DNA of 64,000 nt. It comes from Bolinopsis microptera (lineage: Eukaryota > Ctenophora > Tentaculata > Lobata > Bolinopsidae). A model generated the notes under the pieces. The model saw nothing but the letters and a program-made list of their open reading frames with translations. It did no database searches and was not told the DNA's origin. Numbering within the stretch: the stretch's first letter is position 1; each line of letters opens with the position of its first letter. The translations under genes were made by a program, and so were the position numbers. Positions 8,835 through 62,762 of the stretch are shown here, in pieces. The stretch spans positions 17,954,712 to 18,018,711 of the forward strand of contig NC_087074.1 of assembly GCF_026151205.1 (NCBI RefSeq), written 5' to 3'.

Positions 8835-11800
8835 ATGCTGGAAGCTTTCACTGCACACGAACTATTGTCCAATATTCCAGTACAAATAGAATCTATTTGT
8901 ACTTATGAAGATCGACTTCTGGTCGGCACCAAACAGGTACTTCAAGTGATTTAATTTGTTGACACAATAGCGACACAATACGTGCATATAAGCATGATAA
9001 GACCCCTTATGGGACCTATATTTGAGTCGAGACAGTTGACAGGTTATTTGAGAGGCTCCAGATACTAGGAATTGGAATCATATTGCATATAATACCGTTT
9101 TTTTCTATACCATGCACTTTTCGTTTCCCCGAGGAGCTCGGTATATCGAGGTTCGACTGTACATAATATTATTCAATTTCACACGTCAGTATGTTTTTGA
9201 TTTTATAATTCATAATTCAATGTTCGAAATAAAACTTAATGATTACTCATCTCCCCCCGGCAGGTAGCCCACCTCTCCCCCGCCCCAAGCCCCCAGCAGG
9301 TATTTATAGAACATCTTTCAGGGAACACTGCTGGTGTACAAGTTTGAGAATGACAAAATTGACCTGTTTCTCACTTTGAAGGGATTTTCCAAGAAGACTA
9401 TTAATCAGGTTATAATTTAGTTAATTCTATTAATTCTGGCTGATTCTAGTTAATTCTGGCTAATTATAGTTAAGGGCACTTTCAAAAACTATGTTAACGA
9501 ATCTGTCACGGGAAAAATTTCAACTTCTAGAAGCTCTCATTTGGTGGATAAACTCAATATTTTGATTAAACTTTTTTTCAGCATAGGATTTGCGATAGTT
9601 CAACTTTTACAAAAAGAATAAAATGTCTACTATGTCTATGAGCAGAGATACACGCATTTAAATCAGGGCTAATAATGGTGGATATACTTTTCAGAGGGGT
9701 TTGGTGTCCATATATCATTGATTGGCCTGTAACTTTACGTGTGGTTAATTTATGGTGATTATTTAAAGATAGAATTGTAGCAAATCGATATGCCTCTATG
9801 ATAAAAGGCGAAAATAAAGAAAGATTTCAATTTTAAGGCTAGATATGGTGGATAATAAAACGATGAAATAAAATTCAATACCGAAAATTTTCAACTGAAA
9901 AAATTATATTGGTCAACAAGTTCACCAGCTTTACTCAGTGAACGGATCAGGTTGGAAATCGTTTCAAGTTTATGATAGCATAGAAGATTTAATTTTTAGG
10001 CCACTTTTGGTGGATATATTGGAGCTTCAAGATTGATTTAATTTTAAGTCAATTTCTGAGTCAATAATGCAGGTTATCCATTGTTAGACCCCAATTATCT
10101 CGTCTAGAAGCTGAAAATGTATACAATTATTGCTCTAGGGCCATAATGAATGGATATAGTTTCATACGAACTTAACAAACTGTTTCCTTTCAGCCTTTAG
10201 AGCTGTTTTTGGTGGATAAAAGTACTAAAACGGGAAAATTTGCTTTTGTATCCACTATTTTTGGCCCTAGATGTGTTCTATCATGAAACTACAACTGTTT
10301 CTAGATAGAAAATCCCCTTTGCTGAGTCAGTTCAAAAGAATTTTCAGTCCAAGACGACTTTTAAGGTTAAAATTGGTGGATATTAAATGTGAATAACCTA
10401 CCTCAGTGATTGAAATAACGATTTCTTGACTGATAACGTATGTGATCCACTTTCAACGCCCAATAATTATATCTTAAGGTCGAAAGAGCTGAAAATCATT
10501 GCTCTGAGGTCGAAGAGAAGGGCTATAGTTTCAAGTAAACGTTCCAAAAATTCTCCATTTAGGGCCGTTTTTGGTGGATAAATGCCTAAGAAATTAGCTT
10601 AAAAACGGTTAAATTTGCTTTTTTATCCACTATTTCTGGCCTTAGATTTGCTCGATTATGAAATCATACACTGATATTGGTTTGTTTAGACCTTTTTCTT
10701 GTTCAGCACAAAATGTGATAAGCTCAAGCCGACTTTTAAGGCCAAAATTGATGGATATCAAAATATCCAGGTCGATATTTTAAGTATTTTTGAGTTAATT
10801 ATCCACCAAATTGGCCCTGAATGCTTAAAATGCCATAGTACCTTATGCATAAATGTTCAACATCTTATATTTTATCTTTTTCGACTGTTTCTAATCACGA
10901 TGATGTCTTATTTATTGATATTTTGGTAACATTTACGTGTTTAACTAATTAATATTGACTTATATCCACCAAAAATAGCCTTTTAACTTGAATCTCGAAC
11001 TCTAAGTTGGTGCCATTCATTTAACATTGCCTTTGCACCATTTTAAGACCAGTAAATTGATGTTAGCTAACAAATAACAGTCTTAAAAAAGAGGTAAAAA
11101 AATATATCCACCAAATTTGGCCCTTAAGAAAAATCCCGGCCCTACATATGAAATTGTGAAGTTATAACGATTATTTATAAGTCTCAATCATATTTTAGGA
11201 GTTTAGATGGAATTAAATATTTTTAAAGGCCACCTGAAGTGGATTGGTCTGTTTCACTTTTATCCACCAGATTTAGCCCTAAATCGAAACAAAAAGTGGC
11301 AGATAGTAAAGGTTAGGGTATAGCACACCATATCCTGGAGTTTCATCCCGTTCCAAAAATTATCCACCAAATTATGCCACAAAAACTGATTTTTGGCAAA
11401 TTTTAACATTTTTTCCGTGACAGATGTTTTTGAAAGTGCCCTTAATTGTATTCAATTTTAGCTAATTCTAGTTAATTATATTTAATTCTAATTAATTATA
11501 TTTAATTCTAATTAATTCTAATTAATTCTAATTAATTCTAGCTAATTCTAGATAATTCTAGCTAATTCTAGTTAATTATATTTAATTCTAGCTAATTCTA
11601 GTTAATTGTATTTAATATATTTAATAATAGGTAATACTAGTTGAAATACTAGTTAATTCTAATAAAAAATAAATTCTAGCTAATTCTGATTAATTCGAGT
11701 CAATTCTAGTTAATTCTAGTTAATTCTAGCTAATTCTAATTAATTTTAGTTAATTAGATAGTTAATTCTAATTAATTCTAATTAATTCCAATTAATTCTA

Positions 11801-14800
11801 GCTAATTCTAGTTAATTCTAATTAATTCTAATTAATTTTAGTTAATTTTAATTAATTGTAATTAATTCTAGCTAGAATTAAGAGTAGCCTGCCAGTGGCG
11901 TAACGTTGCCTGTTGGCACTCCCACCGAAAAAGCGCGCCCCTGTTGGCGCCCCCTCCCCTTTTGGGGCCCCTCCCTAAAATTGAACAAATTAGGTGATTT
12001 TAGAGGATACGCCGGTAAAATCTCTAAAAAAGTGTGTATCTAGAACAAAACGCGCAGTTTTGCTCATCTCTAAAAAAGTGTGTATCTAGAACAAAACGCG
12101 CAGTTTTGCTAGTACTTTAGTTAAGTTTTCGAAATTGTCCCACATTCAAACGACGATTTGGCGCCCCCCTAAGACGGCGCCCCCCCCCCCCACCCCCCCC
12201 CCCCCCCCCCCCCCCCCCCGCACAGCGGGGCCCTTCGTTACGCCACTGTAGCCTGCTGACATGACTGTAGCTGCTTGAGAGTAGCCTGCTGATATATACA
12301 GTAAATATTCTCACTACTCTCAAGTTACAAATGAGCCAAATTGTTCAGTGAAATGTATACCATATAATAACTCATGTTAATTTCAGATTTCAGTGACCTC
12401 AGTGTTCAGCCCCTATCAATTAGTGTCCTTATCTGAAGGTACACTGAACATACACACTATACAGCAGTCTGGCTCTATTCAGCCCCTACAATGGTACATA
12501 GGAGGAATTAAAGGGGAATTTTGGGGTATTTTGGGGTATTTTGGGGTATTATGGGGTATTTTGAGGTATTTTGGGGAATGCCTTAGTGGATTTTGGAAAT
12601 CCCCCATAGTAGAGTCCCCCATAAAACCCCAAAGTACCCCAGAATACCCCTTGGCTTCCCCCTACATAACTCTATAACTAACTACGCCACATTTTCACAA
12701 TACGTGAAATATTTTCAAAATTTCACGTATTGTTTTAGCTTCCATTATTGATGGATTGATTTGCCAGTTGGGTTACTTAGTGACCAGGTAATGTTACCTA
12801 GTGACCAGTTTGGTTGATTATTCCTCTCCTCAGTGAAGGCTTGGCTAAAGCTCGTGGCTCAACCCTCTTCACTCTTCATCAGTCAACTGCTGCAGATGAG
12901 CAACCATCCGCTCAACTAGCCGTCGCTTGTAAAAGGAAAATAATACTGTACCGTGTAAGTAGGACCAACCCTTGAGTGTAGATTACAATAACCTACATAA
13001 GTAGAACCAACTCTTGAGTGTAGATTACAATAATCTACATAAGTAGAACCAACTTTTGAGTGTAGATAACAATAATCTACATAAGTAGAACCAGCTCTTG
13101 AGTGTAGATTACAATAATCTACATTTAAAGTAGAACCAACTCTTGAGTGTAGATTACAATAATCTACATAAGTAGAACCAACTCTTGAGTGTAGATTACA
13201 ATAATCTACATAAGTAGAACCAACTCTTGAGTGTAGATTACAATAATCTACATAAGTAGAACCAACTCTTGGGTGTAGATTACAATAATCTACATAAGTA
13301 GAACCAACTCTTGAGTGTAGATTACAATAATCTACATAAGTAGATCCTACCCTCGAGTATTGATTAAAATAATCTACCTAAGTATTGTGTAGTGGCTAAA
13401 GAAAGGACCACCTCAAGAAGTCAAGGAGATAAACCTGTATGACGTTCCCAAAGCGATGGTATTCCACGGCCAGGGCTACTCAGATAAGATTTACATTGGG
13501 TTTAAAGGGAAATACTGTCAGTTACATGTCTCGACTGAACAAGTTAAAGATATGCTTTGTACAGGTTAATAATAACCATTACTACTTTACTATTTCCATT
13601 ACTATAGTATCCTATTTCCCTGTTTGGGTGTTTCTTCTCCTCTTGATATTGTTAGCTACTTAGCGGGAATTATGTTGAACTACGGGTATATAAGTATGTC
13701 GAAGGTGCACATTCTTAACATGACATGTACTAGTAGGCACGGGTTACACTAGTTAGTAATATTATAGTGGGTAATGTAGTGAGAGGGTTACACTAGTTAG
13801 TAATATTATAGTGGGTAATGTAGTGAGAGGGTTACACTAGTTAGTAATATTATAGTGGGTAATGTAGTGAGAGGGTTACACTAGTTAGTAATATTAGAGT
13901 GGGTAATGTAGTGAGAGGCGCCCCAATCTAAAAGATGAGGAGAAATATAGCACCTAGCCAAGAACATCCCAGTATTGAAAATACATAGGAATATGTATAG
14001 ACTATAGGCTATTACCATTTTCTACTCAACTCCCACTTTTAGAATAATTTATATTTCAATACCGTGTCTCTTACACGCTAGTCGCTTTGTAGGGGCTTTG
14101 TATCTGATAACAGTCTAACCATTACCAAGACTCAGGACTCATGAGTGGTATTATGATAAACTGCTTGCGGAGGTAAACTGCTTGCGGAGGTAAACTCGTG
14201 GACACTGGACAGCGGGCCTAATTCATTACCATATTTTTGTAAAGTGATCTTATAAAATATATATTAATATAACAATGTAGTACTTAAAATAACTCATACT
14301 ACTAGGGAGGCAGTTGGAGGCGACAATGTTGTGGGTAGACAAAGAAACTGTTGCTATCTGTAAGGACGAGTGGAGCATTCTGCTTGCGGAGGACGGCAAA
14401 CCCTACCAAGATGAGTTCAAGTCAAACATTAAGTACGTTACCCTTCAAGTAGCTATTAGATATCGGGGGTGGGATGGCGGCACCCCACCCAAATGAACGT
14501 GATTATTACTTGATTTGATATTAGGTTCCTCAAATGAGTGATAATAGTGAGTCATAACATAACGAATTGTCTCAATCGAGCACTCAGTGGCTGTACTACT
14601 CAGTGACTGACAAATAAACGTTTGTACACTTTTTAAAGGCCCATCCTGGCAGGTGGTGCGACTGTCCCTCTGCGCTACTCTACTGCAAGCCCTACATTGT
14701 AGCGGTTATCAACAAGGGAATTGAAGTGAAGACTATTCAACTGGTGGAGCCCATTCAGGTAAGAGTCTTATTGATCCATCTTACTAACAGTCTTACTAAC

Positions 14801-17800
14801 AGTCTTACATGATATTCAATTTAGGGTCATGTTTAAGGTCAGGTTAGGGGTCGTACCCTCAAAACGCTTTTTTAGATAATAGTATGATATAAACAAAGTA
14901 TCGAGTATCAAAGTATCAATTTAGTGTCAGGTTTAAAACGCTTTTTTATTTAATATTATGTTATAAACAGTTTATAAACTCTATCACCTGTTTATCTAAC
15001 CTTAGTTTTGTAGGCAAGTTGATAGAAAGAGTAGTGCTCAGGCGTCTAAATGAACATCTAGAAAACAACAACCTGAACATCCCACAGCAGTCTGGATACA
15101 AATCAAAACACAGCACCGAGACTCTGCTTGTGAGAGTTGTTAACGATCTGCTCATTGCATCTACAGAAAGCAAGGCAACTGTTGTTCTTCTCCTAGATCT
15201 CAGCGCAGCTTTTGATACAGTTGACCACTGCAAACTACTGAACATCCTCAGAAATGAGTTGGGAATAACAGGGACAGCTTGGAAATGGTTCAGCAGCTTC
15301 CTCACAGGTAGATGTCAAACGATTAAAGTTGGAAATGAGGAATCTTATGAGATAGTGATTAAGTTTGGAGTCCCACAGGGCTCTGTGCTGGGTCCGGTCC
15401 TGTTCAACATCTACATTCGCTCTTTGTACTCAGCAGCACATGATTTGAACTTCTCCATCCAGGGTTACGCCGACGATCATCAGCTGTATAAAAGTTTCAA
15501 GCCAAACGAGGAGCCCACCGTCCTTATCAACGATGTTCCCAAATGTTTCCAAGAAATTAATGACTGGATGAAAAAACATTATCTACAGCTCAATGCAGGA
15601 AAAACTGAGATTCTTGTTTTTGGGACACCGCTTGTTCTCCAGCAGCTGTCTATAGGGGGCGTGTTTGTTAACTCTGAGACGTGTGTCAGGCTGTCACCTG
15701 TTGCAAAGAACCTCGGATTTCGTCTCGACTCTCAACTAAACTTTGGTGAGCAAATCAAGCAACTTAAAACATCGTGTTTTCTGAAACTAAGAGACCTTGC
15801 TAAGATGAAAACATTCCTCACAACCAAACAGATGGGAACACTGACTCAAGCAATTGTAATCTCATCGCTTGACTACTGCAATGCGCTTTACTATGGTTGT
15901 AGTCAAGCCTCAATTACGCAGCTGCAGAACATTCAGAACCGAGCATGCCGTCTGGTTTTTGGATTAAAGAAGAGAGACTCAGTCGAGGAGAAGCTCAAAT
16001 CCCTTCATTGGCTCAAGGTGAAGGAAAGGATTGAGTTTAAGCTATGTTTACTGATTTTCAAAGCAGTCAATGGTGTTGCTCCTGCATATCTGTGTGATCT
16101 AGTAACATTTGTTAGTTCGAGTAGCAGAAGAACTTCCTCCTTACACCTACCTGTCGGATCTACAAGATCGCACCCAAGAGCGTTTCAGACTGTTGCTCCG
16201 AAAATCTGGAACCAACTACCAATTGAAATTAAGACTTGTTCTGATGTTGATCTGTTCAAAACATTATTAAAAACTCACCTGTTTAAGAAAAGTTATGGCT
16301 TGAGCGATTAATTGACAATATAACTTTATGTTATTTGCTTAAACTGTTTAGGATGCAACCTAATGTCATGATCTTTTTGAACTTATTAGCAATTAGACTG
16401 TTAGCTCGCTTCATAAGCATATCATCTTCTTTCCAAAACTTTTTATGTCCTATGCATACACTCCTGGATAGTTATCTTGATCTAGTATCTTTGTTTCACA
16501 CAATAGAGCATAAGTTTTGTGGTTTATCCACTGGGCTTAGAGTTTGTGTTTAAGCTACCAAATTTTATTATTATTATTTATTATAAACAGGTGATAGAGT
16601 TACCGAAAGTGAAGTTGGTGGCACGAGATAAACGAATGTTCGTAGCTTCAGCCACCCACCTCTGGGAACTGAAACTGAAGGACCTTATTCTTCAGGCGAG
16701 TGCTTTACAAGAAGTATCTTCTTAAAAATAGAGTATAACCTCATCATTATAATTTCTCTTTCTTTAGAGTCAAAACATGAGGTGACAAAACATACATTTT
16801 GTATCATGATTACATTTTCATCCCTTCCATGAATGTATTTGTAAATATTACGTATAAATATACGTATAATATACATGTTTAATATCTTACTTTATACAGT
16901 CCAAAAGTGGCCCAAGTGTGACTACCCACACGCAACCTCTTAATAACTCACGTAATTCGTCTCCAAATTGCACCAAAATTTCAGAGATTATAGATATGGG
17001 TCAAACTTAGATTTCCTGAAAGTTTCGTAAGCCACGCCCAATTACAGTGGGCGTGGCGTGACACTCCCTCTTTTTCACTAATGTCTTCATAAAATGAGAA
17101 CGCTTTAAGCTAAGAACTCCAAATTTTTTGCACAAATTTGGCTTGATAATTTAAAACCTTTCCCAAAGTTTCAAGTTCATTGTTCAAAATTTGGCTGAGT
17201 TATGACCATTTCAAAATTCATCGGAAACGTGATCCGAGCACTCAGTCAGTGATCTCTGCACTCAATCAGTGATCTCGTCACCCAATCTGATCAAGAGTAA
17301 GGCGTTAGCTGTATTAATGAGGTTCATTAGGCTTTACCAAACATACTGAGGAGATGAAGTTCTGATCATGATTGATTGGATACCGATAATGACTTTGCTA
17401 GACAGGAAAACACCAAATTCTTCGTAAAAGTAAGGTCCTAGGATTCCACGAGAACTGATGGAGCACCAGATCGTGACCTTTTCAGGAAAATCAGGAATCA
17501 CGGTCTAAAAGTTGGTGTTTCTTTGTGATCCGATAGACCCGGTTAGAAAGATCTCGCTTTAGGATTCGTTGAAGGGATGTTCTGCTGAGGTCTAAGGCAG
17601 GAGCTCGTTTTCGGGTGCCAATTTTAGGTGTATCCATCACGTCACAAACAACCATGGTGATGTTTTCTTCGGTCCTCGCAGTTCGTCTTCTGCCGACTCT
17701 TCACCGATCGTTTGCAGAAAAAGTGAACTTGATCTTGTGATGCATATCAAAGCAGCTTTTCCGGCAAGGGGATGGTCGGTTGAATTTCATTTAAAATTGT

Positions 17801-20800
17801 CGATTAAGCTGAGGACAGAACTCCCCATTCTCTTTCTTCAGGTAGACAAACAATCGTTGTTCCGCAGATTCAATGGATAGTTCATTCCTTTTTATCGATT
17901 GTAAGGAACGAACCTGTGACTAGCAGGGCTAACAAGCCCTGCAACCAATCAAGCGGTGCATGTGAGCCAAACAGGCCATTAACCAAGTGCAGAGATCACT
18001 GACTGAGTGCTCGGATCACGTTTCCGATGAATTTTGAAATGGTCATAACTCAGCCAAATTTTGAACAATGAACTTGAAACTTTGGGAAAGGTTTTAAATT
18101 ATCAAGCCAAATGTGTGCAAAAAATTTGGAGTTCTTAGCTTAAAGCGTTCTCATTTTATGAAGACAATAGTGAAAAAGAGGGAGTGTCACGCCACGCCCA
18201 CTGTAATTGGGCGTGGCTTACGAAACTTTCAGGAAATCTAAGTTTGACCCATATCTATAATCTCTGAAATTTTGGTGCAATTTGAAGACGAATTACGTAA
18301 GTTATAAAAAGGTTGCGTGTGGGTAGTCACTTTTGGGCCACCCTGTATATAAAGCAAGACGATATATGTATCATAATATAATAATACATAACATGAAGAC
18401 GTTTGTAACTTGTTTAAAAAGCATTAATACAGTAAAACACCCATTATTACCATTTTACTGACATGATTTTTGACTACTTTTCGCGAAGACCACACCGTGA
18501 GAGATGCTGCCTTTTGACCAGTATAAAGAATTTAAAAATTGGCCAAGGTATAAGAGCTTTAGGTCCAGAAATTTGGACCCCCAAATGGTATCACAAACAC
18601 AAAATAAATGAATTTTGTTTTATCTTGACACCACTTTTGGGTCGGACGGGTTTCTGCTAGGAGAAAAAGGCTGGCTTCGTCTAATATTAGTACCCTAAAG
18701 CGAAAGTACAATAGCAATGGATTACACAGGATTAAATCTGTAGCAATGTGTCAACGCTTCGTGCTTTAATTCATTGAACAATCCTTCGGAAAATTGAACA
18801 TTACAGGAACAAATAGCATCCTGAACGTTTAAATGTATTTTCCAAAGTAACTTGCCAAAAAAACAGCCAAAGAACTGGTCACAATGAAATAGTGGTCATC
18901 ACCAGAAGTCTTAAGTTAAATGTTGACAAACCCATACCCATAAGTTTAGGTTGTCACAACATTCCTTAGTCCTTACCGTACATTGCATTCTTACCCCGGC
19001 CCTACCTAGATTGAGCGTTATAAAGTGTGCACTTAACAAGAATTTCTGTGTCATTTTCGTAGGTGCGCTTTTGTGCCGCCTACTCTGCTGTTCTCGCGCA
19101 TACGCTCACTTTTTTGGAACCAATTTACATCAATACACGTAGAGTATACAGTAATTTGTCGAATCGAAAAATATTCGTGTTCATTTTTTTCAAATGAAGG
19201 TTCGCATTTATTTGATAGTTTGTATAGTCGGATCGAGCCAAATTTCATTGAATTGTGTTTGGCAATCCGAATTACGTTTGTTCTGAAAAAATGAGGGTTG
19301 TAGCTTCTCAGATAACCGAAATACGAAGCATAACGAGTTTATTCATTATGTGAGATCAGGTGATTGGTTTACCTAATCACGTGATAAGGTGACCCCGTTA
19401 TGGTTAAACATTATGGGAATCTTTAAGGCTGCCCAATTAAGGTGTCGTGTCACGGTGTCACATAATCACCCAGTCAGTTTTGTTAACGAGATACACAAAA
19501 TGCTTGATAACTTCGTCATTTCTAATCCGTTTTGCCTCATTTTTGTTAGATCAGATGCAATATTTAATAATCTACCGTCTCTGAAGAAATTAGGCGTCCA
19601 GCATGTTCAGAGATAACAATATAGGTGTTTTAATATTGAATGGGCGTGGTCTAAAATATTCGAATTTTCAAATTTTGGCGACGGAACCCTCGAACAAGTA
19701 GGTACAGTATGCCATCTGCAAAGCAACAACTCTCAAATATAAAACACGGCAGAGGTATAAGACTCAACGTTTGCACACTGACTTTCATTTAGATAACATA
19801 TTGTGTTTAAAAAATGTGAGGATAATTAATATTTAAACATGTGACAGGTGGACAAGCTAATAACTTTAAAGCAGTTTGAGTTAGCCGAGACACTCAACAA
19901 GATGACACACGAGCAAGGTGGTGATCACGAGCAAGCGGTCAGTTTACTAGATTGTGGAATAAACACGTTATTTAGTACTCAGTATGATTATGATATGTGT
20001 ATTTTATGTTTCTTTCATCCAAATTTCTGATTGTTTCTGAGTAGACTAATACTCAGTAACAATCTGAAATTTGAATGAAAGAAACGGCAAATCACGAGAC
20101 TCAATAATAATACACGACTCAATCAGATGTGATATGTATTTTAGATGTAGTGCTATTTTGCAGAGTAGACTGCATTGTGATGTAGTGCTATTTTGCAGAG
20201 TAGACTGCACTGTGATACAGTGCTATTTTGCAGAGTAGACTGCATTGTGATGTAGTGCTATTTTGCAGAGTAGACTGCACTGTGATACATTGCTATTTTG
20301 CAGAGTAGACTGCACTGTGATGTAGTGATATTTTGCAGAGTAGACTGCACTGTGATACATTGCTATTTTGCAGAGTAGACTGCACTGTGATACATTGCTA
20401 TTTTGCAGAGTAGACTGCACTGTGATACAGTGCTATTTTGCAGAGTAGACTGCACTGTGATACAGTGCTATTTTGCAGAATATACTGCACTGTGATACAG
20501 TGCTATTTTGCAGAGTAGACTGCACTGTGATGTAGTGCTATTTTGCAGAGTAGACTGCACTGTGATACATTGCTATTTTGCAGAGTAGACTGCACTGTGA
20601 TATAGTGCTATTTTGCAGAGTAGACTGCACTGTGATGTAGTGCTATTTTGCAGAGTAGACTGCACTGTGATACATTGCTATTTTGCAGAGTAGACTGCAC
20701 TGTGATATAGTGCTATTTTGCAGAGTAGACTGCACTATGATACAGTGCTATTTTGCAGAGTAGACTGCACTGTGATATAATGATATTTCGCAGAATAGAC

Positions 20801-23800
20801 AGCGAACAGTGATCAACACCCAAGCAGCGTATCATGAGTTTATTAATAAGAGATATGAGAAGTCAATGACGAGGTTTCAGAAAACTAATGTCGAGGTTAG
20901 ATTTATAGTTTTTATTTTATCTAGCTGTCGTGTGCATTGCCGAAAAATCTATGTTTTTACAAATAAGCAATATCTTCAACTTCAAATACATTATACACTA
21001 TAGGTTGCCAACGTTATAGGACTGTTTCCAGAGCTCCTCTCCAAGAAGATGCAGGATAAGCAGGTCTACCCTGCAGACATTCTGGAGGCTAGAAAATACC
21101 TTACTACTAAGGACATTGAAACAGGTGCTGTTCTGATCATTAATTATATAGATTAATAATTTATAATAATTCGCATATTAACTGGGAAAATAATCAATTA
21201 TTTGTAATAAGTTTTAGCTCTGATGTGTAGGTCATTTTTGATGTCACATTTTATCTCAAATTGTGCCTACAGAGTGAAAACATAAAAACTTAATCATTTT
21301 AATTTCTAAGCTCTAGCATTGATTTACAATTATTTATCATCCAAAATTTTAGGAGATTTTACGACACAAAGATTAACTGTTAATAATTTTTGGAGGAGGA
21401 AGAGTTGGAATTGGAGGGGGGGGGGGGGGGGGGGGTCATGTTAATAAAGCATGATCCCCCACCACCCATTTAGCAACCAAAAGCTTTTAACGAGCTTATA
21501 CATGCTGTCAGGTCTGGAAGCATTAGAAAAGTATCTGGTGGCGAAGAGATTTGACCTGAACAAATACGAGGAGGAAGTTGAGAACAGCAAACAAACCAAG
21601 ATAATTATCGACACAACTCTCTTGAAGTGTTATCTGCAGAACAAACCTAAGATGGTCGCTTCTCTCCTCAGGTTTAAATCTTTTTTTCGATTGTTAATAG
21701 AAAGTTCCTAATTTTGACAAAAATTTGCCAGGCTGTGTCCCCCCTCCTTCGCAGTGCCGGGCTGTGTCCCCTCTCCTTCACATTGCCGGGCTGTGTCCCC
21801 CTCCTTCACACTGCCGGGCTGTGTCCCCCCTCCTTCACATTGCCGGGCTGTGTCCCCCCTCCTTCGCAGTGCCGGGCTGTGTCCCCTCTCCTTCACATTG
21901 CCGGGCTGTGTCCCCCTCCTTCACACTGCCAGGCTGTGTCCCCCCTCCTTCACATTGCCGGGCTGTGTCCCCTCCCTTCACACTGCCGGGCTGTGTCCCC
22001 CCTCCTTCACACTGCCGGGCTGTGTCCCCCCTCCTTCACATTGCCGGGCTGTGTCCCCCCTCCTTCACACTGCCAGGCTGTGTCCCCCCTCCTTCACATT
22101 GCCGGGCTGTGTCCCCCCTCCTTCACATTGCCGGGATGTGTCCCCCCTCCTTCACACTGCCGGGCTGTGTCCCCCCTCCTTCACACTGCCGGGCTGTGTC
22201 CCCCCTCCTTCACATTGCCGGGCTGTGTCCCCCCTCCTTCACATTGCCGGGCTGTGTCCCCCCTCCTTCACATTGCCGGGCTGTGTCCCCTCTCCTTCAC
22301 ATTGCCAGGCTGTGTCCCCCCTCCTTCACATTGCCGGGCTGTGTCCCCTCTCCTTCACACTGCCGGGCTGTGTCCCCCCTCCTTCACATTGCCGGGGTGT
22401 GTCCCCCCTCCTTCACATTGCCGGGCTGTGTCCCCTCTCCTTCACATTGCCGGGGTGTGTCCCCCCTCCTTCACACTGCCGGGCTGTGTCCCCTCTCCTT
22501 CACATAGCCGGGGTGTGTCCCCCCTCCTTCACATTGCCGGGCTGTGTCCCCTCTCCTTCACATTGCCGGGCCGTGTCCCCCCTCCTTCACATTGCCGGGG
22601 TGTGTCCCCCCTCCTTCACATTGCCGGGCTGTGTCCCCCCTCCTTCACAAGTTCACACTGCCGGGCTGTGTCCCCCCTCCTTCACATTGCCGGGCTGTGT
22701 CCCCCCTCCTTCACACTGCCGGGCTGTGTCCCCCCTCCTACACATTGCCGGGCTGTGTCCCCCCTCCTTCACACTGCCGGGCTGTGTCCCCCCTCCTTCA
22801 CACTGCCGGGCTGTGTCCCCTCTCCTTCACATTGCCGGGCTGTGTACCCCCTCCTTCACACTGCCGGGCTGTGTCCCCCCTCCTTCACATTGCCGGGCTG
22901 TGTCACAGTATATAATATATCCGACTCTCTCGTTTGTGTAACAGTTAGTGACCAATATATCCCACTTTTTTGAGGAGGACAAATTTAACAAAATTGAAAG
23001 CTAACACGTTCACTAATACTATATAGTAATATGTAAATATTATAGTAACCCGTGTATAGATATAGAATATCAGCAGAAATAGAGTAACCGTTATTTATCT
23101 GCACTGATATGATAATTGAATAAATTGAACCGATTTAATGGCAAATGGTTAATAAAGGTAAACATTCGTCACTTAACTAATGATTGGTATATTATATGAT
23201 CATTGACTACCTTAGGTGACTTATTTATATGGGGATTTTGAGAAAAACAAAAACCCATATTTTAAGACCACCAAAACTTCAATTCTCAGAATTATATCAT
23301 ATAAATGCAACTTAAATATGTCTCCTAAGCCCCTGAGGTGTAAGGTTACAAAGATTTTGCTCATTGTAAATATTGTCACTAAATTTGCAGGTGGTAATAA
23401 TAATTACTGTGATCAAAGTAAGAGTCTCATTTCCAATTCTCACACAGGCTGAAGGATAACGAGTGCCACATAGTGGAGAGTGAGCGGGCGCTTAAACGTG
23501 CGCGCCGCATGAACGACATCATCATTCTCTACAAGTCTAAGGTAAGACAACATTATTAACTATTTCAACAGGTCCAAATTAACAATCTCTAGATTTCTAA
23601 GTTGTTTTTATCTCAAACTGTGACTGTGACTGTGACTGTGACTGTGACTGTGACTGTGACTGGTGTTCACACCTGTAATATGAGACCTTTATTACTTACA
23701 GGGGGTTATTAGCACCTGTACTTACAGACCTGTAACCACCTGCAACAGTGTGTTTGGCACTAAAATGTGGAAGTATTCCCTCTCATCCCCGAGCAGGGAC

Positions 23801-26800
23801 AAAAGGATTTCGCGGTTATTTTGGCCAAAAATCGCGATACCGCGAATTACATTTCGCGGTATATTAAACTATACATAAAATTGGTCGCAAATAATGGGAA
23901 AAATCGCGATTCCGTACATGCCGCGATTTCCTTTTGTCCCTGTCCCCGAGATAAACTATATGCACTATAATAGTCAGTAGATTAGGAGGAACTGTAGTTA
24001 CATTGTAAACAGTGTAGGTTAAACCCAATCCTGACTCCAGGGACAGCACGTAGTTACATTGTAAACAGTGTAGGTTAAACCCAATCCTGACTCCAGGGAC
24101 AGCACGTATTTACATTGTAAACAGTACAGTGTAGGTTAAACCCAATCCTGACTCCAGGGACAGCACGTAGTTACATTGTAAACAGTGTAGGTTAAACCCA
24201 ATCCTGACTCCAGGGACAGCACGTAGTTACATTGTAGACAGTGTAGGTTAAACCCAATCCTGACTCCAGGGACAGCACGTATTTACATTGTAAACAGTGT
24301 AGCTTAAACCCAATCCTGACTCCAGGGACAGCACGGAGTTACATTGTAAACAGTGTAGGTTAAACCCAATCCTGACTTCAGGGACAGCACGTAGTTACAT
24401 TGTAAACAGTGTAGGTTAAACTCGATCCTGACTCAAGGGACAGCACGTAGTTACATTGTAAACAGTGTAGGTTAAACCCAATCCTGACTCCAGGGACAGC
24501 ACGTAGTTACATTGTAAACAGTGTAGGTTAAACTCAATCCTGACTCCAGGGACAACACGTAGTTACATTGTAAACAGTGTAGGTTAAACCCAATCCTGAC
24601 TCCAGGGACAGCACGTATTTACATTGTAAACAGTGTAGGTTAAACCCAATCCTGACTCCAGGGACAGCACGTAGTTACATTGTAAACAGTGTAGGTTAAA
24701 CCCAATCCTGACTCAAGGGACAGCACGTAGTTACATTGTAAACAGTGTAGGTTAAACCCAATCCTGACTCCAGGGACAGCACGTAGTTACATTGTAAACA
24801 GTGTACGTTAAACCCAATCCTGACTCCAGGGACAGCACGTAGTTACATTGTTAACAGTGTAGGTTAAACCCAATCCTGACTCCAGGGACAGCACGTAGTT
24901 ACATTGTTAACAGTGTAGGTTAAATCCAATCCTGACTCCAGGGACAGCACGTAGTTACATTGTAAACAGCACTGTAGGTTAAACCCAATCCTGACTCCAG
25001 GGACAGCACGTAGTTACATTGTAAACAGTGTAGGTTAAACCCAATCCTGACTCCAGGGACAGCACGTAGTTACATTGTAAACAGTGTAGGTTAAACCCAA
25101 TCCTGACTCCAGGGACAGCACGTAGTTACATTGTAAACAGTGTAGGTTAAACCCAATCCTGACTCCAGGGACAGCACGTAGTTACATTGTTAACAGTGTA
25201 GGTTAAACCCAATCCTGACTCCAGGGACAGCACGTAGTTACATTGTTAACAGTGTAGGTTAAACCCAATCCTGACTCCAGGGACAGCACGTAGTTACATT
25301 GTAAACAGTGTAGGTTAAACCCAATCCTGACTCCAGGGACAGCACGTAGTTACATTGTAAACAGTGTACGTTAAACCCAATCCTGACTCCAGGGACAGCA
25401 CGTAGTTACATTGTTAACAGTGTAGGTTAAATCCAATCCTGACTCCAGGGACAGCACGTAGTTACATTGTTAACAGTGTAGGTTAAATCCAATCCTGACT
25501 CCAGGGACAGCACGTAGTTACATTGTAAACAGTGTAGGTTAAACCCAATCCTGACTCCAGGGACAGCACGTAGTTACATTGTAAACAGTGTAGGTTAAAC
25601 CCAATCCTGACTCCAGGGACAGCACGTAGTTACATTGTAAACAGTGTAGGTTAAACCCAATCCTGACTCCAGGGACAGCACGTAGTTATATTGTAAACAG
25701 TGTAGGTTAAACTCGATCCTGACTCCAGGGACAGCACGTAGTTACATTGTAAACAGTGTAGGTTAAACCCAATCCTGACTCCAGGGACAGCACGTAGTTA
25801 CATTGTAATCAGTGTAGGTTAAACTCGATCCTGACTCCAGGGACAGCACGTAGTTACATTGTAAACAGTGTAGGTTAAACCCAATCCTGACTCCAGGGAC
25901 AGCACGTAGTTACATTGTAAACAGTGTAGGTTAAACCCAATCCTGACTCCAGGGACAACACGTAGTTACATTGTAAACAGTGTAGGTTAAACCCAATCCT
26001 GACTCCAGGGACAGCACGTAGTTACATTGTAAACAGTGTAGGTTAAACCCAATCCTGACTCCAGGGACAGCACGTAGTTACATTGTAAACAGTGTAGGTT
26101 AAACCCAATCCTGACTCCAGGGACAGCACGTAGTTACATTGTAAACAGTGTAGGTTAAACCCAATCCTGACTCCAGGGACAGCACGTAGTTACATTGTAA
26201 ACAGTGTAGGTTAAACCCAATCCTGACTCCAGGGACAGCACGTAGTTACATTGTAAACAGTGTAGGTTAAACCCAATCCTGACTCCAGGGACAGCACGTA
26301 GTTACATTGTAAACAGTGTAGGTTAAACCCAATCCTGACTCCAGGGACAGCACGTAGTTACATTGTAAACAGTGTAGGTTAAACCCAATCCTGACTCCAG
26401 GGACAGCACGTAGTTACATTGTAAACAGTGTACGTTAAACCCAATCCTGACTCCAGGGACAGCACGTAGTTACATTGTTAACAGTGTAGGTTAAATCCAA
26501 TCCTGACTCCAGGGACAGCACGTAGTTACATTGTTAACAGTGTAGGTTAAATCCAATCCTGACTCCAGGGACAGCACGTAGTTACATTGTAAACAGTGTA
26601 GGTTAAACCCAATCCTGACTCCAGGGACAGCACGTAGTTACATTGTAAACAGTGTAGGTTAAACCCAATCCTGACTCCAGGGACAGCACGTAGTTACATT
26701 GTAAACAGTGTAGGTTAAACCCAATCCTGACTCCAGGGACAGCACGTAGTTATATTGTAAACAGTGTAGGTTAAACTCGATCCTGACTCCAGGGACAGCA

Positions 26801-29800
26801 CGTAGTTACATTGTAAACAGTGTAGGTTAAACCCAATCCTGACTCCAGGGACAGCACGTAGTTACATTGTAAACAGTGTAGGTTAAACCCAATCCTGACT
26901 CCAGGGACAGCACGTAGTTACATTGTAAACAGTGTAGGTTAAACCCAATCCTGACTCCAGGGACAGCACGTAGTTACATTGTAAACAGTGTAGGTTAAAT
27001 CCAATCCTGACTCCAGGGACAGCACGTAGTTACATTGTAAACAGTGTAGGTTAAACCCAATCCTGACTCCAGGGACAGCACGTAGTTACATTGTAAACAG
27101 TGTAGGTTAAATCCAATCCTGACTCCAGGGACAGCACGTAGTTACATTGTAAACAGTGTAGGTTAAACCCAATCCTGACTCCAGGGACAGCACGTAGTTA
27201 CATTGTAAACAGTGTAGGTTAAATCCAATCCTGACTTCAGGGACAGCACGTAGTTACATTGTAAACAGCACTGTAGGTTAAACCCAATCCTGACTTCAGG
27301 GACAGCACGTAGTTACATTGTAAACAGTGTAGGTTAAACCCAATCCTGACTCCAGGGACAGCACGTAGTTACATTGTAAACAGTGTAGGTTAAACCCAAT
27401 CCTGACTCCAGGGACAGCACGTAGTTACATTGTAAACAGTGTAGGTTAAACCCAATCCTGACTCCAGGGACAGCACGTAGTTACATTGTAAACAGTGTAG
27501 GTTAAATCCAATCCTGACTCCAGGGACAGCACGTAGTTACATTGTAAACAGTGTAGGTTAAACCCAATCCTGACTCCAGGGACAGCACGTAGTTACATTG
27601 TAAACAGTGTAGGTTAAATCCAATCCTGACTCCAGGGACAGCACGTAGTTACATTGTAAACAGTGTAGGTTAAACCCAATCCTGACTCCAGGGACAGCAC
27701 GTAGTTGGGGGGGGGGGGGCAATGACTACTTTTGGGGACTTGGGGAATTACGTCAACGATTTTACCCCGAGTCCCCGTGATTTTTAGTCCCCATTAGTCC
27801 CCAAAAGTCTCCATTTGTCCCCATTTAGATGATTTTTAGTCCCCATTAGTCCCCAAAAGTCTCCATTAGTCCCCATTTAGATTTATCCTACTCTTATCTT
27901 GGACAAAACATCTCGATCGTATCGTTATTAAACTAACTTGAAAACCATAAATAACTGTCAAAAATTCTGGGGACTTATGGGGACAAATGGTGAATTACGT
28001 CAACGAGTTGACCTCTAGTCCCCATGATTTTTAGTCCCCATTAGTCCCCAAAAGTCTCCATTGGTAGTCATTGGCCCCCCCCCCCCGCCCCCCACGTAGT
28101 TACATTGTAAACAGTGTAGGTTAAACCCAATCCTGACTCAAGGGACAGCACGTAGTTACATTGTAAACAGTGTAGGTTAAACCCAATCCTGACTCCAGGG
28201 ACAGCACGAGAAGGCGCTGACAGTACTGAAGCAGTATGCAAATATGCAGAACACACAGAAACACGAGCTGGGAGGACCTGAACACACCATCAAGTACCTA
28301 CAGGACCTGGGACCTGAGGACATCCACCTAATCAAGGAATACTCCAAGTTAGCATTTACCCACCTTATCAAGGAATACTCCAAGTTAGCATTTACCCACC
28401 TTATCAAGCTAAGGAATACTCCAAGTTAGCATTTACCCACCTTATCAAGGAATACTCCAAGTTAGCATTTACCCACCTTATCAAGGAATACTCCAAGTTA
28501 GCATTTACCCACCTTATCAAGGAATACTCCAAGTTAGCATTTACCCACCTTATCAAGGAATACTCCAAGTTAGCATTCACCCACCTTATCAAGGAATACT
28601 CCAAGTTAGCATTCACCCACCTTATCAAGGAATACTCCAAGTTAGCATTTACCCACCTTATCAAGGAATACTCCAAGTTAGCATTTACCCACCTTATCAA
28701 GGAATACTCCAAGTTAGCGTTTACCCATCTTATCAAGGAATACTCCAAGTTAGCATTTACCCACCTTATCAAGGAATACTCCAAGTTAGCATTTACCCAT
28801 CTTATCAAGGAATACTCCAAGTTAGCATTTACCCACCTTATCAAGGAATACTCCAAGTTAGCATTTACCCACCTTATCAAGGAATACTACAAGTTAGCGT
28901 TTACCCACCTTATCAAGGAATACTCCAAGTTAGCATTTACCCACCTTATCAAGGAATACTACAAGTTAGCATTTACCCACCTTATCAAGGAATACTCCAA
29001 GTTAGCATTTACCCACCTTATCAAGGAATACTACAAGTTAGCATTTACCCACCTTATCAAGGAATACTACAAGTTAGCATTTACCCACCTTATCAAGGAA
29101 TACTCCAAGTTAGCATTTACCCACCTTATCAAGGAATACTACAAGTTAGCATTTACCCACCTTATCAAGGAATACTCCAAGTTAGCGTTTACCCACCTTA
29201 TCAAGGAATACTCCAAGTTAGCATTTACCCATCTTATCAAGGAATAATCCAAGTTAGCGTTTACCCACCTTATCAAGGAATACTCCAAGTTAGCATTTAC
29301 CCACCTTATCAAGGAATACTCCAAGTTAGCGTTTACCCACCTTATCAAGGAATACTACAAGTTAGCATTTACCCACCTTATCAAGGAATACTCCAAGTTA
29401 GCGTTTACCCACCTTATCAAGGAATACTCCAAGTTAGCATTTACCCATCTTATCAAGGAATACTCCAAGTTAGCGTTTACCCACCTTATCAAGGAATACT
29501 CCAAGTTAGCATTTACCCACCTTATCAAGGAATACTCCAAGTTAGCGTTTACCCACCTTATCAAGGAATACTCCAAGTTAGCATTTACCCACCTTATCAA
29601 GGAATACTCCAAGTTAGCGTTTACCCACCTTATCAAGGAATACTCCAAGTTAGCGTTTACCCACCTTATCAAGGAATACTTCAAGTTAGCATTTACCCAC
29701 CTTATCAAGGAATACTCCAAGTTAGCATTTACCCACCTTATCAAGGAATACTCCAAGTTAGCATTTACCCATCTTATCAAGGAATACTCCAAGTTAGCAT

Positions 29801-32800
29801 TTACCCACCTTATCAAGGAATACTCCAAGTTAGCATTTACCCACCTTATCAAGGAATACTCCAAGTTAGCATTTATCCACCTTATCAAGGAATACTCCAA
29901 GTTAGCATTTATCCACCTTATCAAGGAATACTCCAAGTTAGCATTTACCCACCTTATCAAGGAATACTCCAAGTTAGCGTTTACCCACCTTATCAAGGAA
30001 TACTTCAAGTTAGCATTTACCCACCTTATCAAGGAATACTCCAAGTTAGCATTTACCCACCTTATCAAGGAATACTCCAAGTTAGCATTTACCCATCTTA
30101 TCAAGGAATACTCCAAGTTAGCATTTACCCACCTTATCAAGGAATACTAGTTATCTTTGAAATGTCGTAAATAATTTAAATTACTCTAGGATCTTGTCGT
30201 CACAACAAATAATACCACTACTTATATAATAGCGTCTATTCTAGTCCTCCTTTGCCTTTTATTTCCTCTGCAATACGAGCAAATGGAGTCTGGCTTGCTC
30301 TTCAGGTGACCGATCCGGAGAAGGTTACACTATATAACATAATATTATTCTGAAATATCTGAACTTTGCGAGCAGTTTAAAAAGGAATGAAGTGATTATT
30401 CAGGATTGAAAATACGTAAAAACAACTTGATTAATGTAATTGAAATAATGAATAAAATAAATGCTAACATTTATTACAATTACGGACTTGATATGATTAT
30501 ATCAAGATTATGCACTATCAGTTCAGAATTTATTGTCAAATGTTAGTATGAAAATACCAAAATTATGAACTTCTATACATCGGTTCAGACATTGTATTAG
30601 GGCTATCATCAAAAGCTTAGTAAAAATTAAATGTTTTTAGGGAATATAAAAAAGATTTAACATTGATAATGCTCTCACTGAGTAGGGTAGTTCATTCCAA
30701 ATTTTGGTGCCACAAAACATATTATATGCAGCATCTGTAATATTCTGTTGATCTGAAATGTGGTGCAGGAGGATCTTAAACAGATGTGTAACCCCCCCCC
30801 CTCCCAGGTGGGTGATAGAATGTGTAACCCCCCCCCCCCCCCTCCCAGGTGGATGATAGAATGTGTAACCCCCCCCCCCTCCCAGATGTGTAACCCCCCC
30901 CCCTCCCAGGTGGGTGATAGAATGTGTAACCCCCCCCCCTCCCAGGTAGGTGATAGAATGTGTAACCCCCCCCCCCTCCCAGATGTGTAACCCCCCCCCC
31001 CTCCCAGGTGGGTGATAGAATGTGTAACCCCCCCCCCCTCCCAGGTGGGTGATAGAATGTGTAACCCCCCCCCTCCCAGGTGGGTGATAGAATGTGTAAC
31101 CCCCCCCCCCTCCCAGGTGGGTGATAGAATGTGTAACCCCCCCCCCTCCCAGGTGGGTGATAGAATGTGTAACCCCCCCCCCCCCCCCCTCCCAGGTGGG
31201 TGATAGAATGTTTAACCCCCCCCCCCTCCCAGGTGGGTGATAGAATGTGTAACCCCCCCCCCCCCCCTCCCAGGTGGGTGATAGAGTGTGTAACCTCCCC
31301 CCCCTCCCAGGTGGGTGATAGAGAAACACCCTGACAGATGTCTGGACATCTTCACAGACCCTAGCACAGTGCACACTCTCCCAAAAGAGCAAGTAGTACA
31401 ACACCTCAAGTCTATGAACCCCGACATTGCTCTTCAGTACCTTGAACGGGTTGGTGGTATCATTTTAGAAATAATAGATACAATTTTATATTACCTTACG
31501 AGACATATTTATGTTCGACATAATTCCGGTGACCTAAATGATTTGGGATCGAAAATATGGGATTTTTTTCCGGAAACCGCCACATTTCGTACCCCTAATT
31601 AAATCATGGTATTTGGGAATTTTTTTCATCTCCTTATTTTACAAAAATGAAACCTAATATTTGAGAAAATTAAATACAAAGATCTTCTCTGATCAGCTGT
31701 TCCATCTTGTAAACAATTTCTCCGGAGCCTTAACTTAACTTCTAATCTTCCAGACGGTATACGAGACCGACAGTGTTTGTTATATTTCACTACTCACCGC
31801 CGTGGTCAATATTATAGTAGTGACAGAGCTTGCTTGTTTTTAGTGGAACGTGTCCAAAATCATTTTTAAAGCAATTCATGATCGAATACTAGTGTTCATT
31901 AATTGTTTGATGAACCATATTTACAACTTGTTTGTTTGGGGACCGGTTTTTGGTACACCGGCCAATATTTACAAAATCATAATATGATACATAACAATAT
32001 AATTTTATTTAATATACGTGAATATAAGAATTGAAAATTATGATGTAACCTTTATCGTTTATTCATTTAAAAAAAAACCAAAACTTTAAAAATTAAAACT
32101 TGCATATCATGATTTATTAACATAGTGACAAATAATTTGATTTGATACGACAGATGATCACACGCACTGTTTTATGAGCTACTTGTGTTGGATTAAGATT
32201 AGTGGGCACTGGGCAGTGCCGAGTCGATAGTATAGTGCTCTGTATCAGTATTCAGTATAGTGCTCTGTTTGAAGTAAAAGAACTTACTATATTGATAAGT
32301 TGAGAGTAAATCGATAAAGTCATAATTAAGGAAAATGATGGTGACCTAAATTTTGGTAGTCCGAAAATACCATTTAAATAATATGTCTCGTAAGGTATAA
32401 AAACTAAAAAGATTTTAAACCCTTAACTCATTTAATTACCATAGCTAGTATTTTATTCTGCAAGCAGTTACTGTGATGGAATCTAGCGGTAATTTTCTAC
32501 ATAAAGTTTTTAGTTATTTATAATCTATATTTATCACAAACTCATAAACTTCCTAAAAATTTTAAGAGCTTTCCTTTCAGTTGATAGACATTTGGAACGT
32601 GAGCTCTCAAGAGATTGAAAACTCTTTGATAATACTTCTTGTTGAAAAAGTAACTCATTTATTTAAGTGTACTTAAATTTAAATATCTAATTCCGCAAAT
32701 TGAATAAATATTGTTCAATGTTTGAAAATGTGTCACTAGGTAGAAGTGCAGCTAATTGCAGCTAATTGCAGCTAATTGCAGCTAATTGCAGCTAATTGCA

Positions 32801-42954: not shown

Positions 42955-42984
42955 ATGTTTTTAAATGTAAGTAAAACAGGAGGA

Positions 42985-47979: not shown

Positions 47980-48410
47980 AATTAGTGATGGATGAGGGGG
48001 TTTAAGTCAGGCATTCCTGACATTTACTCTACTACTATTTATAAATTAAAAATCATGTTAAGAAGATAGCAGCAACTAATCTATATTATTTACAGTGCTC
48101 TATTTTATGTGTACTGAAGAGTGCCTTTACAATATTCCACTTTGTGGTGTAGATTTCCTCCATATCCAACAGGCAACACTGATTGAGTGATGGATGAGGG
48201 GGTTTAAGTCAGGTGTTCCTGACATGTATTCAAAATTGCATTGAGAAGATAACAGTAACTAATCTATATTATTTACAGTGCTCTATTTATGTACTGAAGG
48301 GTACCTTTACAATACTTCAGTTTGTGGTAGGGTTCCTCCACATCCAACAGGTAACACGGAATGAGTGATGGATGAGGGGGTTTAAGTCAGGCATTCCTGT
48401 CAAAAGATCT
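47980..48410 (+). repeat. About 180-200-bp tandem duplication
   Basis: The motif GATGGATGAGGGGGTTTAAG followed by TCAGG(C/T) occurs three times (about 47988, 48191 and 48368). Intervening sequence is similar (CAGTGCTCTATTT, CTTTACAATA, CATCCAACAGG). There are two full copies and a partial third. Confidence 0.85.
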
Positions 48411-49939: not shown

Positions 49940-51725
49940 TAACCCCCCTCCCACTAGCTGGCTGGTACCCCCCCCCCTCCCACTAGCTGGCTGGTACCCC
50001 CCCACCCCCCTCCCACTAGCTGGCTGGTACCCCCCACCCCCCTCCCACTAGCTGGCTGGTACCCCCCACCCCCCTCCCACTAGCTGGCTTGTACCCCCAC
50101 CCCCCTCCCACTAGCTGGCTTGTACCCCCACCCCCTCCCACTAGCTGGCTTGTACTCCCCCCTCCCACTAGCTGGCTTGTACCCCCACCTCCCACTAGCT
50201 GGCTTGTACCCCCCACCCCCCTCCCACTTGCTGGCTTGTACCCCCCTCCCACTAGCTGGCTTGTACCCCCCACCCCCCTCACTAGCTGGCTTGTACCCCC
50301 ACCCCCCTCCCACTAGCTGGCTTGTACCCCCACCTCCCACTAGCTGGCTTGTACCCCCCACCCCCCTCCCACTAGCTGGCTTGTACCCCCACCCCCTCCC
50401 ACTAGCTGGCTTGTACTCCCCCCCTCCCACTAGCTGGCTTGTACCCCCACCCCCCCACTTGCTGGCTGGTACCCCCCCTCCCACTAGCTGGCTGGTACCC
50501 CACCCCCTCCCACTAGATGGCTAGTTCCCCCCCCCCCCCCCCCACTTGCTGGCTTGTACCCCCCTCCCACTAGCTGGCTTGTACCCCCACCCCCTCACTA
50601 GCTGGCTTGTACCCCCACCCCCCTCCCACTAGCTGGCTTGTACTCCCCCTCCCACTAGCTGGCTTGTACCCCCCCCCCCTCCCACTAGGTGGCTTGTACC
50701 CCCACCCCCCTCCCACTAGCTGGCTTGTACCCCCACCCCCCTCCCACTAGCTGGCTTGTACTCCCCCCTCCCACTAGCTGGCTTGTACCCCCACCTCCCA
50801 CTAGCTGGCTTGTACCCCCCACCCCCCTCCCACTTGCTGGCTTGTACCCCCCTCCCACTAGCTGGCTTGTACCCCCCACCCCCCTCACTAGCTGGCTTGT
50901 ACCCCCACCCCCCTCCCACTAGCTGGCTTGTACCCCCACCTCCCACTAGCTGGCTTGTACCCCCCACCCCCCTCCCACTAGCTGGCTTGTACCCCCACCC
51001 CCCTCCCACTAGCTGGCTTGTACTCCCCCCTCCCACTAGCTGGCTTGTACCCCCACCCCCCCCCACTTGCTGGCTGGTACCCCCCTCCCACTAGCTGGCT
51101 GGTACCCCACCCCCTCCCACTAGATGGCTAGTTCCCCCCCCCCCCCCACTTGCTGGCTTGTACCCCCCTCCCACTAGCTGGCTTGTACCCCCACCCCCTC
51201 ACTAGCTGGCTTGTACCCCCACCCCCCTCCCACTAGCTGGCTTGTACTCCCCCCTCCCACTAGCTGGCTTGTACCCCCCCCCCCTCCCACTAGGTGGCTT
51301 GTACCCCCACCCCCCCCCCCACTTGCTGGCTTGTACCCCCCCTCCCACTAGCTGGCTAGTTCCCCCCACCCCCCTCACTAGCTGGCTTGTACCCCCACCC
51401 CCCTCCCACTAGCTGGCTTGTACCCCCCCTCGCCCTCCCACTAGCTGGCTTGTACCCCCCCACCCCCCTCCCACTTGCTGGCTTATACCCCCCCTCCCAC
51501 TAGCTGGCTTGTACCCCCCACCCCCCTCACTAGCTGGCTTGTACCCCCACCCCCCTCCCACTAGCTGGCTTGTACCCCCACCTCCCACTATCTGGCTTGT
51601 ACCCCCCACCCCTCCCTCCCACTAGCTGGCTGGTACCCCCCACCCCTTCCCACTAGATGGCTAGTTCCCCCCTCCCCCACTAGCTGTCTGGTACCCCACC
51701 ACCCCCTCCCACTAGCTGGCGGGGG
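49940..51725 (+). repeat. 1.8-kb C-rich minisatellite (25-32-bp unit)
   Basis: About 62 copies of CTCCCACTAGCTGGCTTGTA followed by C runs of varying length are present. A block of about 600 bp is itself duplicated: the CTAGTT-C-run-ACTTGCTGG junction occurs at about 50520 and 51125. The many open frames (TSWLVPPPP and similar) are repeat by-products. It is intergenic, between the LINE fragments and the OSBP 3' end. Confidence 0.96.
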
Positions 51726-52552: not shown

Positions 52553-62463
<9,911 letters not shown>

Positions 62464-62473
<10 letters not shown>

Positions 62474-62762
62474 ATCATTAGATAATTATAGCTAACTGAA
62501 ACAGAGAATTATAAGACATATCATTAGATAATTATAGCTAGCTGAAACAGAGAATTATAAGACATATCATTAGATTATTATAGCTAGCTGAAACAGAGAA
62601 TTATAAGACATATCATTAGATTATTATAGCTACCTGAAACAGAGAATTATAAGACATATCATTAGATAATTATAGCTAGCTGAAACAGAGAATTATAAGA
62701 CATATCATTAGATTATTAAATAGCTAGCTGAAACAGAGAATTATTAGACATTATATCATTAG
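62464..62762 (-). repeat. 46-bp array abutting an OSBP exon acceptor
   Basis: Just over six copies of a 46-bp unit are present. On the minus strand each ends in TAATGATATGTCTTAT, and the final one continues into CCAG and exon 62460-62425. The array therefore ends about three bases before the acceptor and forms the branch-point and pyrimidine region of the intron. Each unit also has a TTTCAG of its own. Confidence 0.85.

What the first reader, a model, noticed from the sequence alone, without database searches (positions are those of the whole stretch)
8835..62762. Tandem arrays whose repeat unit is an exon-intron junction, recurring in two genes
At least seven splice junctions are themselves the repeat unit of an adjacent tandem array: acceptors of VPS39 exons 10, 14, 15 and 16, donors of exons 14 and 16, and one OSBP donor. 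An OSBP acceptor and the VPS39 intron 4 donor are abutted by arrays too. Each unit mixes coding sequence with splice-site sequence, and the unit sizes differ (10, 34, 35, 36, 56, 81 bp), so no common element is spreading. This suggests a recurrent process that starts duplication at splice junctions, or selection that tolerates duplication only there because the outermost site still gives correct splicing. It could be a route to intron growth.
Basis: partly seen in the sequence, partly recalled or inferred. Interest (0 to 1): 0.9.

Follow-up and report, generated by a model that had tools for sequence, protein, structure and literature searches.

The report
Repeat arrays straddling splice sites
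In a gene of what is probably a comb jelly, five exon-intron borders have been copied head to tail up to dozens of times, greatly lengthening the introns; the sequences compared suggest that the outermost copy is the one used for splicing, and a small sample of other genes does not show that such borders are copied more often than chance.

Summary
The core observation is real. A 22-exon VPS39 model (877 aa, 42 junctions) carries five minisatellites whose unit contains a splice junction: acceptors of exons 10, 14, 15 and donors of exons 14, 17 (units 35, 56, 37, 36, 81 bp; about 13-71 copies). One OSBP donor shows the same in two copies. That relative joins exons 13/14, 14/15 and 17/18 with one unit copy, covering four of the five junctions, although 169 of 176 inner copies keep GT or AG. 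The five units searched match only their own arrays. These arrays and that of intron 4 make up about a third of VPS39 intron sequence. A "junction hotspot" is not shown: in a sample of other genes 5 of 223 junctions are spanned against 4.2 expected for uniform placement (12 against 6.6 including abutting arrays; up to about three-fold not excluded). VPS39 gives 5 against 2.0-2.7, but was picked for it. Best reading: random tandem duplication in a repeat-rich, probably ctenophore genome, tolerated at junctions because one intact site remains. Precedents exist (human IFI6; human segmental-duplication genes; potato RdRp).

The parts
8835..39254 (+). VPS39 (Vam6) gene, 22 exons, 877 aa model
   Evidence: continuous reading frame; Pfam CNH, Vps39_1, zf-Vps39_C on the first, partly wrong 850-aa model; 504/514 identity to P0001 without gaps
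20149..20800 (+). 35-bp array, unit contains exon 10 acceptor (TTTCGCAG|AATAGAC at 20793/20794), 18 copies
23994..28208 (+). 56-bp array, unit contains exon 14 acceptor (CTCCAG|GGACAG at 28198/28199), about 68-71 copies, split by an insert at 27707-28092
28324..30148 (+). 36-bp array, unit contains exon 14 donor (TACTCCAA|GTTAGC at 28347/28348), about 50 copies
30784..31322 (+). 37-bp array, unit contains exon 15 acceptor (CTCCCAG|GTGGGTG at 31310/31311), 13-15 copies
33003..35385 (+). 81-bp array, unit contains exon 17 donor (GACAGA|GTGAGT at 33060/33061), 29 copies; fills 2,325 of 2,344 bp of intron 17
12956..13384 (+). 42-bp array filling intron 4, starts at base +2 of the donor (12954/12955)
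9413..11871 (+). 10-bp array starting after 4 intron bases at the exon 2 donor, interrupted by an inverted-repeat element about 9474-11441
58874..58943 (-). OSBP exon end (GAACAG|GTACTT, last exon base 58932) in a 34-bp unit, 2.1 copies; 12 exon bases lie in the array
62465..62751 (-). 46-bp array ending 4 nt from a minus-strand open frame that starts at 62460; exon not verified
32747..32806 (+).

Best explanation
These are ordinary minisatellites whose founding duplication happened to straddle an exon-intron border. Steps: (1) tandem duplications of about 10-100 bp arise at many intron positions in this repeat-rich genome (inferred from the array density in the sample); (2) one that straddles a junction leaves an intact copy of the splice site at the exon edge, so the mRNA is unchanged and the duplication is tolerated (shown indirectly: a spliced relative has exactly one copy at three joins, covering four of the five array junctions); (3) later unequal exchange or slippage multiplies and homogenises the copies, splice dinucleotides included (the pattern is shown: low variation between copies in four of five arrays, 169 of 176 inner copies keep GT or AG; the process is inferred), lengthening the intron; (4) the spliceosome uses the exon-proximal copy, probably through exon definition (inferred).
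For: Units hold both exon and intron sequence at five VPS39 junctions. P0001, predicted from a 2,299-nt contig and therefore probably from cDNA, aligns 514/514 without a gap, crossing 12 exon joins including 13|14, 14|15, 17|18. Inner copies keep the dinucleotide in 16/17, 67/70, 49/49, 9/12 and 28/28. In the sample the number of spanning arrays equals the uniform expectation: 5 observed, 4.2 expected, 223 junctions, 110 arrays. Examples in other genes: kinesin donor with a 53-bp unit in 2 copies and kinesin acceptor with a 49-bp unit in 7 copies. Coding hits are almost free of arrays (118 of 22,881 bp, against 15,365 of 195,922 bp overall). The five units searched are not dispersed.
Against: VPS39 has more spanned junctions than the sample (5/42 against 5/223, Fisher P 0.011), and among its arrays of 10 or more copies 5 of 9 span a junction against 0.96-1.30 expected; both comparisons are after the fact. 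Arrays spanning or within 12 bp of a junction are in weak excess in the sample (12 against 6.6, P 0.037). Two of the five spanning arrays of the sample reach only 1 and 5 bases past the junction as placed by my weight matrix, so the count depends on placement. No RNA known to be from this genome was seen; the relative may lack the arrays.
Confidence: 0.65

Rival explanations
1. Splice junctions are hot spots: something tied to junctions (transcription-coupled breaks, R-loops, base-composition steps) starts or expands tandem duplication there.
For: VPS39 arrays of 10 or more copies: 5 of 9 spanning against 0.96-1.30 expected, 7 of 9 spanning or abutting against 1.28-1.74. Sample: 9 array edges in the first 20 intron bases against about 3.5 from the rate further in (arithmetic); 12 against 6.6 spanning or within 12 bp.
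Against: Spanning arrays in the sample match chance (5 against 4.2, P 0.41); 11 of 13 large arrays in the sample are more than 12 bp from a placed junction; the VPS39 statistics are post hoc.
Confidence: 0.15
2. The arrays are used: tandem splice sites give alternative mRNAs, as in human IFI6.
For: At exon 14, using the second donor would add 12 codons in frame before exon 15. Inner sites are mostly intact.
Against: The third and fourth exon 14 donors break the frame; the 81-bp unit has an in-frame stop and the 35-, 37- and 56-bp units are not multiples of three; P0001 uses no inner site at the three joins it covers.
Confidence: 0.08
3. Copy numbers, or whole arrays, are assembly artefacts.
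For: If the genome is Bolinopsis microptera, the published assembly was made with wtdbg, gap-closed and polished (PMC10232365, passages). The 81-bp array shows a 972-bp periodicity of variant copies (read by eye), which misassembly could also give.
Against: Copies differ from each other (0.6-7.6% in four arrays), units carry real junction sequence, and two-copy cases occur in kinesin and myosin genes. Existence is safer than copy number.
Confidence: 0.07
4. The introns themselves were born by tandem duplication of an exon segment, donor and acceptor both coming from copies.
For: Introns 4 and 17 are 98-99% array (coordinates).
Against: In all five spanning cases the partner splice site lies outside the same array (coordinates).
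Confidence: 0.05

Closest known systems
Human IFI6 (6-16) minisatellite providing multiple splice donor sites (Turri et al. 1995)
   Same: [quoted passage not shown] repeat units serve as donors (passage and reference in PMC4526556; the 1995 paper is not held, and details beyond this are recalled).
   Different: There two downstream units are used as alternative donors. Here donors and acceptors are both affected, five junctions in one gene, and the one relative seen uses no inner site.
Internal tandem repeats at exon-intron boundaries of human genes in segmental duplications (PMC2812944)
   Same: Minisatellites, units averaging 30 bp, some at exon-intron boundaries, that change intron structure (passages seen).
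   Different: Those were found as differences between recent paralogues and can alter splicing; here a conserved gene keeps its protein.
[quoted passage not shown] review PMC3443670, passages)
   Same: A tandem duplication crossing an intron-exon boundary.
   Different: Here no new intron is shown; introns appear lengthened, and donor and acceptor are not both from the same array.

Membership tests
Minisatellite with splice site in the unit (IFI6 type) | Repeat unit contains exon sequence, splice site and intron sequence | tested here: met
   Five VPS39 junctions and one OSBP donor
Minisatellite with splice site in the unit (IFI6 type) | Several copies are used as alternative splice sites | tested here: inconclusive
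   Only one spliced relative seen; it shows one copy at three joins
[quoted passage not shown]
   Partner site lies outside the array in 5 of 5 spanning cases (coordinates)
[quoted passage not shown]
   No gene structures of relatives were fetched
Introner-like dispersed elements | Same sequence present in many introns of the genome | tested here: not met
   30 of 30 and 145 of 145 matches of five units lie in their own arrays, counts being lower bounds; the 37-bp, 10-bp and OSBP units were not searched

The most novel reading that the evidence does not exclude
Splice junctions are favoured sites for the birth or the runaway expansion of minisatellites in this genome, so that introns grow mainly outward from their splice sites.
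Probability: 0.15. Interest if true: 0.75.

Novelty: new member of a known kind. Interest (0 to 1): 0.4.

Why it matters
It shows introns of a conserved gene made largely of repeats of their own splice junction (intron 17 is 99% such an array) without a change in the protein, and a spliceosome facing dozens of near-identical sites. It gives a natural test of exon definition and of whether tandem duplication is biased towards junctions; the sample here is compatible with no bias and does not exclude up to about three-fold.

Tried and rejected
My first gene model lacked the exon at 32581-32649 and had a false exon 20 at 38094-38130 that seemed to put a sixth array (34 bp, 38122-38732) on a donor. 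P0001 showed both errors, so the 'six spanning arrays' is withdrawn; the counts used are those. The searches used that earlier model or pieces of it.

The expected numbers assume that founding units fall uniformly over intron sequence with arrays collapsed to one copy. For VPS39 I give a value with and without three clear inserts (1.98 and 2.69). In one search I replaced redundant TRF rows by 22 hand-merged arrays with true units; arrays of period below 7 were left out. The intron 2 array counts as abutting only by its lower-scoring TRF row (start after 4 bases); by the other row it is 13 bp away, and the 7 would be 6.

In the sample, 144 of 193 Pfam hits lay in held sequence and gave 232 junctions, of which 223 lie outside the window region. 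Junctions were placed with a splice-site weight matrix trained first on the then VPS39 model and may be off by some bases. In one search one OSBP donor was placed wrongly (-46 instead of -12); it lies in the window and is not in the 223. Loci were the best 30 matches for myosin and kinesin, all 11 for the oxysterol-binding family, plus ten kinesin stretches. Locus L090 was fetched later and not analysed.

Searches of PF00118 and PF01602 did not complete; PF00176 was answered but no sequence could be taken, so it was not used. Near-identical kinesin paralogues were compared for array turnover; one pair differs by about 930 bp holding three arrays, which says nothing on junctions.

I first thought the Gln at residue 500, inside the exon 14 array unit, was an odd change carried in from the array. 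In one search, 99 of 120 listed proteins (P0001 included) gave a readable motif there and 23 of them also have Gln, so the idea is weak.

Literature searches. In their listings, and in passages of PMC8527503, PMC10232365 and PMC11797021, I saw no report of junction-spanning arrays in ctenophores; the library is open-access only. That the genome is Bolinopsis microptera is an inference from size (264.65 Mb, against 265 Mb and 13 chromosomes in PMC11797021) and from recall; the scaffold count there is 346, here 232 contigs.
Full report
What is there. The window is C3:17954712-18018711 of a 264.65-Mb, 232-contig genome, probably the comb jelly Bolinopsis microptera (inference: 265 Mb and 13 chromosomes are given for it in PMC11797021, though with 346 scaffolds). 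VPS39 runs from 8835 to 39254 on the plus strand. My final model has 22 exons, 42 junctions and 877 codons, with GT-AG borders apart from one GC donor at exon 8. The earlier 850-aa model matches CNH, Vps39_1 and zf-Vps39_C.

A spliced relative. A protein search gave P0001, 514 aa from a 2,299-nt contig. It aligns to residues 364-877 of the final model over 514 positions without gaps, 504 identical. The same coding stretch takes about 18 kb in the genome, so the contig is most likely cDNA (inference). It corrected my first model: an extra exon at 32581-32649, and exon 21 at 38917-38965.

Junction arrays. Five arrays have units that contain a junction: exon 10 acceptor (35 bp, 7 exon bases), exon 14 acceptor (56 bp, 10), exon 14 donor (36 bp, 24), exon 15 acceptor (37 bp, 12) and exon 17 donor (81 bp, 58). 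The functional copy equals the array consensus at the exon 14 acceptor and exon 17 donor, differs by one base at the exon 14 donor, two at the exon 15 acceptor and five at the exon 10 acceptor. Inner copies keep the splice dinucleotide in 16/17, 67/70, 49/49, 9/12 and 28/28 (order as: exon 10 acceptor, 14 acceptor, 14 donor, 15 acceptor, 17 donor); the 9/12, and the high variation of that array, come from an ungapped comparison of a poly-C array and are rough. The 42-bp array of intron 4 starts at donor base +2 and fills the intron; a 10-bp array starts after 4 bases of intron 2. The OSBP donor after 58932 has two copies of a 34-bp unit, with 12 exon bases inside the array. The 10-bp array at 32747-32806 is not an acceptor.

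Effect on introns. From the coordinates, the array part is 429 of 438 bp in intron 4, 645 of 856 in intron 9, 3,819 of 4,657 in intron 13, 2,328 of 2,963 in intron 14 and 2,325 of 2,344 in intron 17: 9,546 of 27,786 intron bases.

Use of sites. P0001 joins 13|14, 14|15 and 17|18 with one copy each, which covers four of the five array junctions. It does not reach the 9|10 join or intron 4. At exon 14 the second donor would add 12 codons in frame, the third and fourth break the frame; at exon 17 a later donor would meet a stop.

Is it more than chance? I searched the genome with three Pfam families, myosin head and kinesin, chosen without regard to arrays, and oxysterol-binding, chosen because OSBP is in the window, and held 195,922 merged bases with 119 arrays covering 15,365 bp. 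Outside the window 110 arrays and 223 junctions remain. Five arrays span a junction against 4.2 expected (P 0.41; ratio 1.2, 95% range 0.4-2.8); twelve span or lie within 12 bp against 6.6 (P 0.037; ratio 1.8, range 0.9-3.2). Two of the five reach only 1 and 5 bases past the placed junction. For arrays of ten or more copies it is 1 of 13 spanning against 0.35 and 2 of 13 spanning or abutting against 0.62. For VPS39, 5 of 22 span against 1.98-2.69 (P 0.05-0.14), and 7 of 22 span or abut against 2.76-3.75 (P 0.02-0.09). Among its nine arrays of ten or more copies, five span against 0.96-1.30 (P 0.003-0.011), while none of the thirteen smaller arrays does. Because the gene was chosen for these arrays, those P values overstate the case.

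Not a spreading element. All 30 matches of the 81-bp unit and all 145 matches of the four joined units lie in their own arrays (lower bounds by the tool's own note; the 37-bp, 10-bp and OSBP units were not searched).

Comparison. Minisatellites or tandem duplications at splice junctions are known: IFI6 (as cited in PMC4526556), human genes in segmental duplications (PMC2812944, passages), and a single duplication across an intron-exon boundary in potato (PMC4974935, abstract). A ctenophore genome rich in tandem repeats is on record: 13% of Hormiphora californensis by the same program (PMC8527503, passage). What I did not find described in the searches listed is the number of junctions in one gene, the copy numbers, and both donors and acceptors being affected.

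Verdict. A striking but probably ordinary consequence of frequent tandem duplication plus tolerance at junctions. The hotspot idea is unproven and testable.

Noticed in passing
28199-28207: Residue 500 is Gln here, Leu in P0001. The codon lies in the exon 14 array unit; 60 of 62 matching copies read CAG, 2 CAA. Gln is also found in 23 of 99 readable homologues, so conversion from the array is only one possibility.
   Followed up: partly
33003-35385: Variant copies of the 81-bp array recur at 972-bp spacing (12 units), read by eye; amplification in blocks or misassembly.
   Followed up: no
9474-11441: Element with perfect inverted ends TTAAGGGCACTTTCAAAAA inside the 10-bp array of intron 2; looks like a TTAA-inserting DNA transposon (label recalled).
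   Followed up: no
14893-16308: 472-residue open frame in intron 7 of VPS39 that resembles a reverse transcriptase (label recalled).
   Followed up: no
3619-3808: Interstitial telomere-like (ACCCTA) array, 31 copies.
   Followed up: no
16691-16700: Exon 8 has a GC donor (TTCAG|GCGAGT).
   Followed up: no
49935-51720: C-rich array of about 30-bp units, roughly 60 copies.
   Followed up: no
L069 and L082: Kinesin paralogues 87 kb apart, 99.9% identical over 1,130 bp, differ by about 930 bp carrying three arrays; recent duplication or uncollapsed haplotypes.
   Followed up: partly
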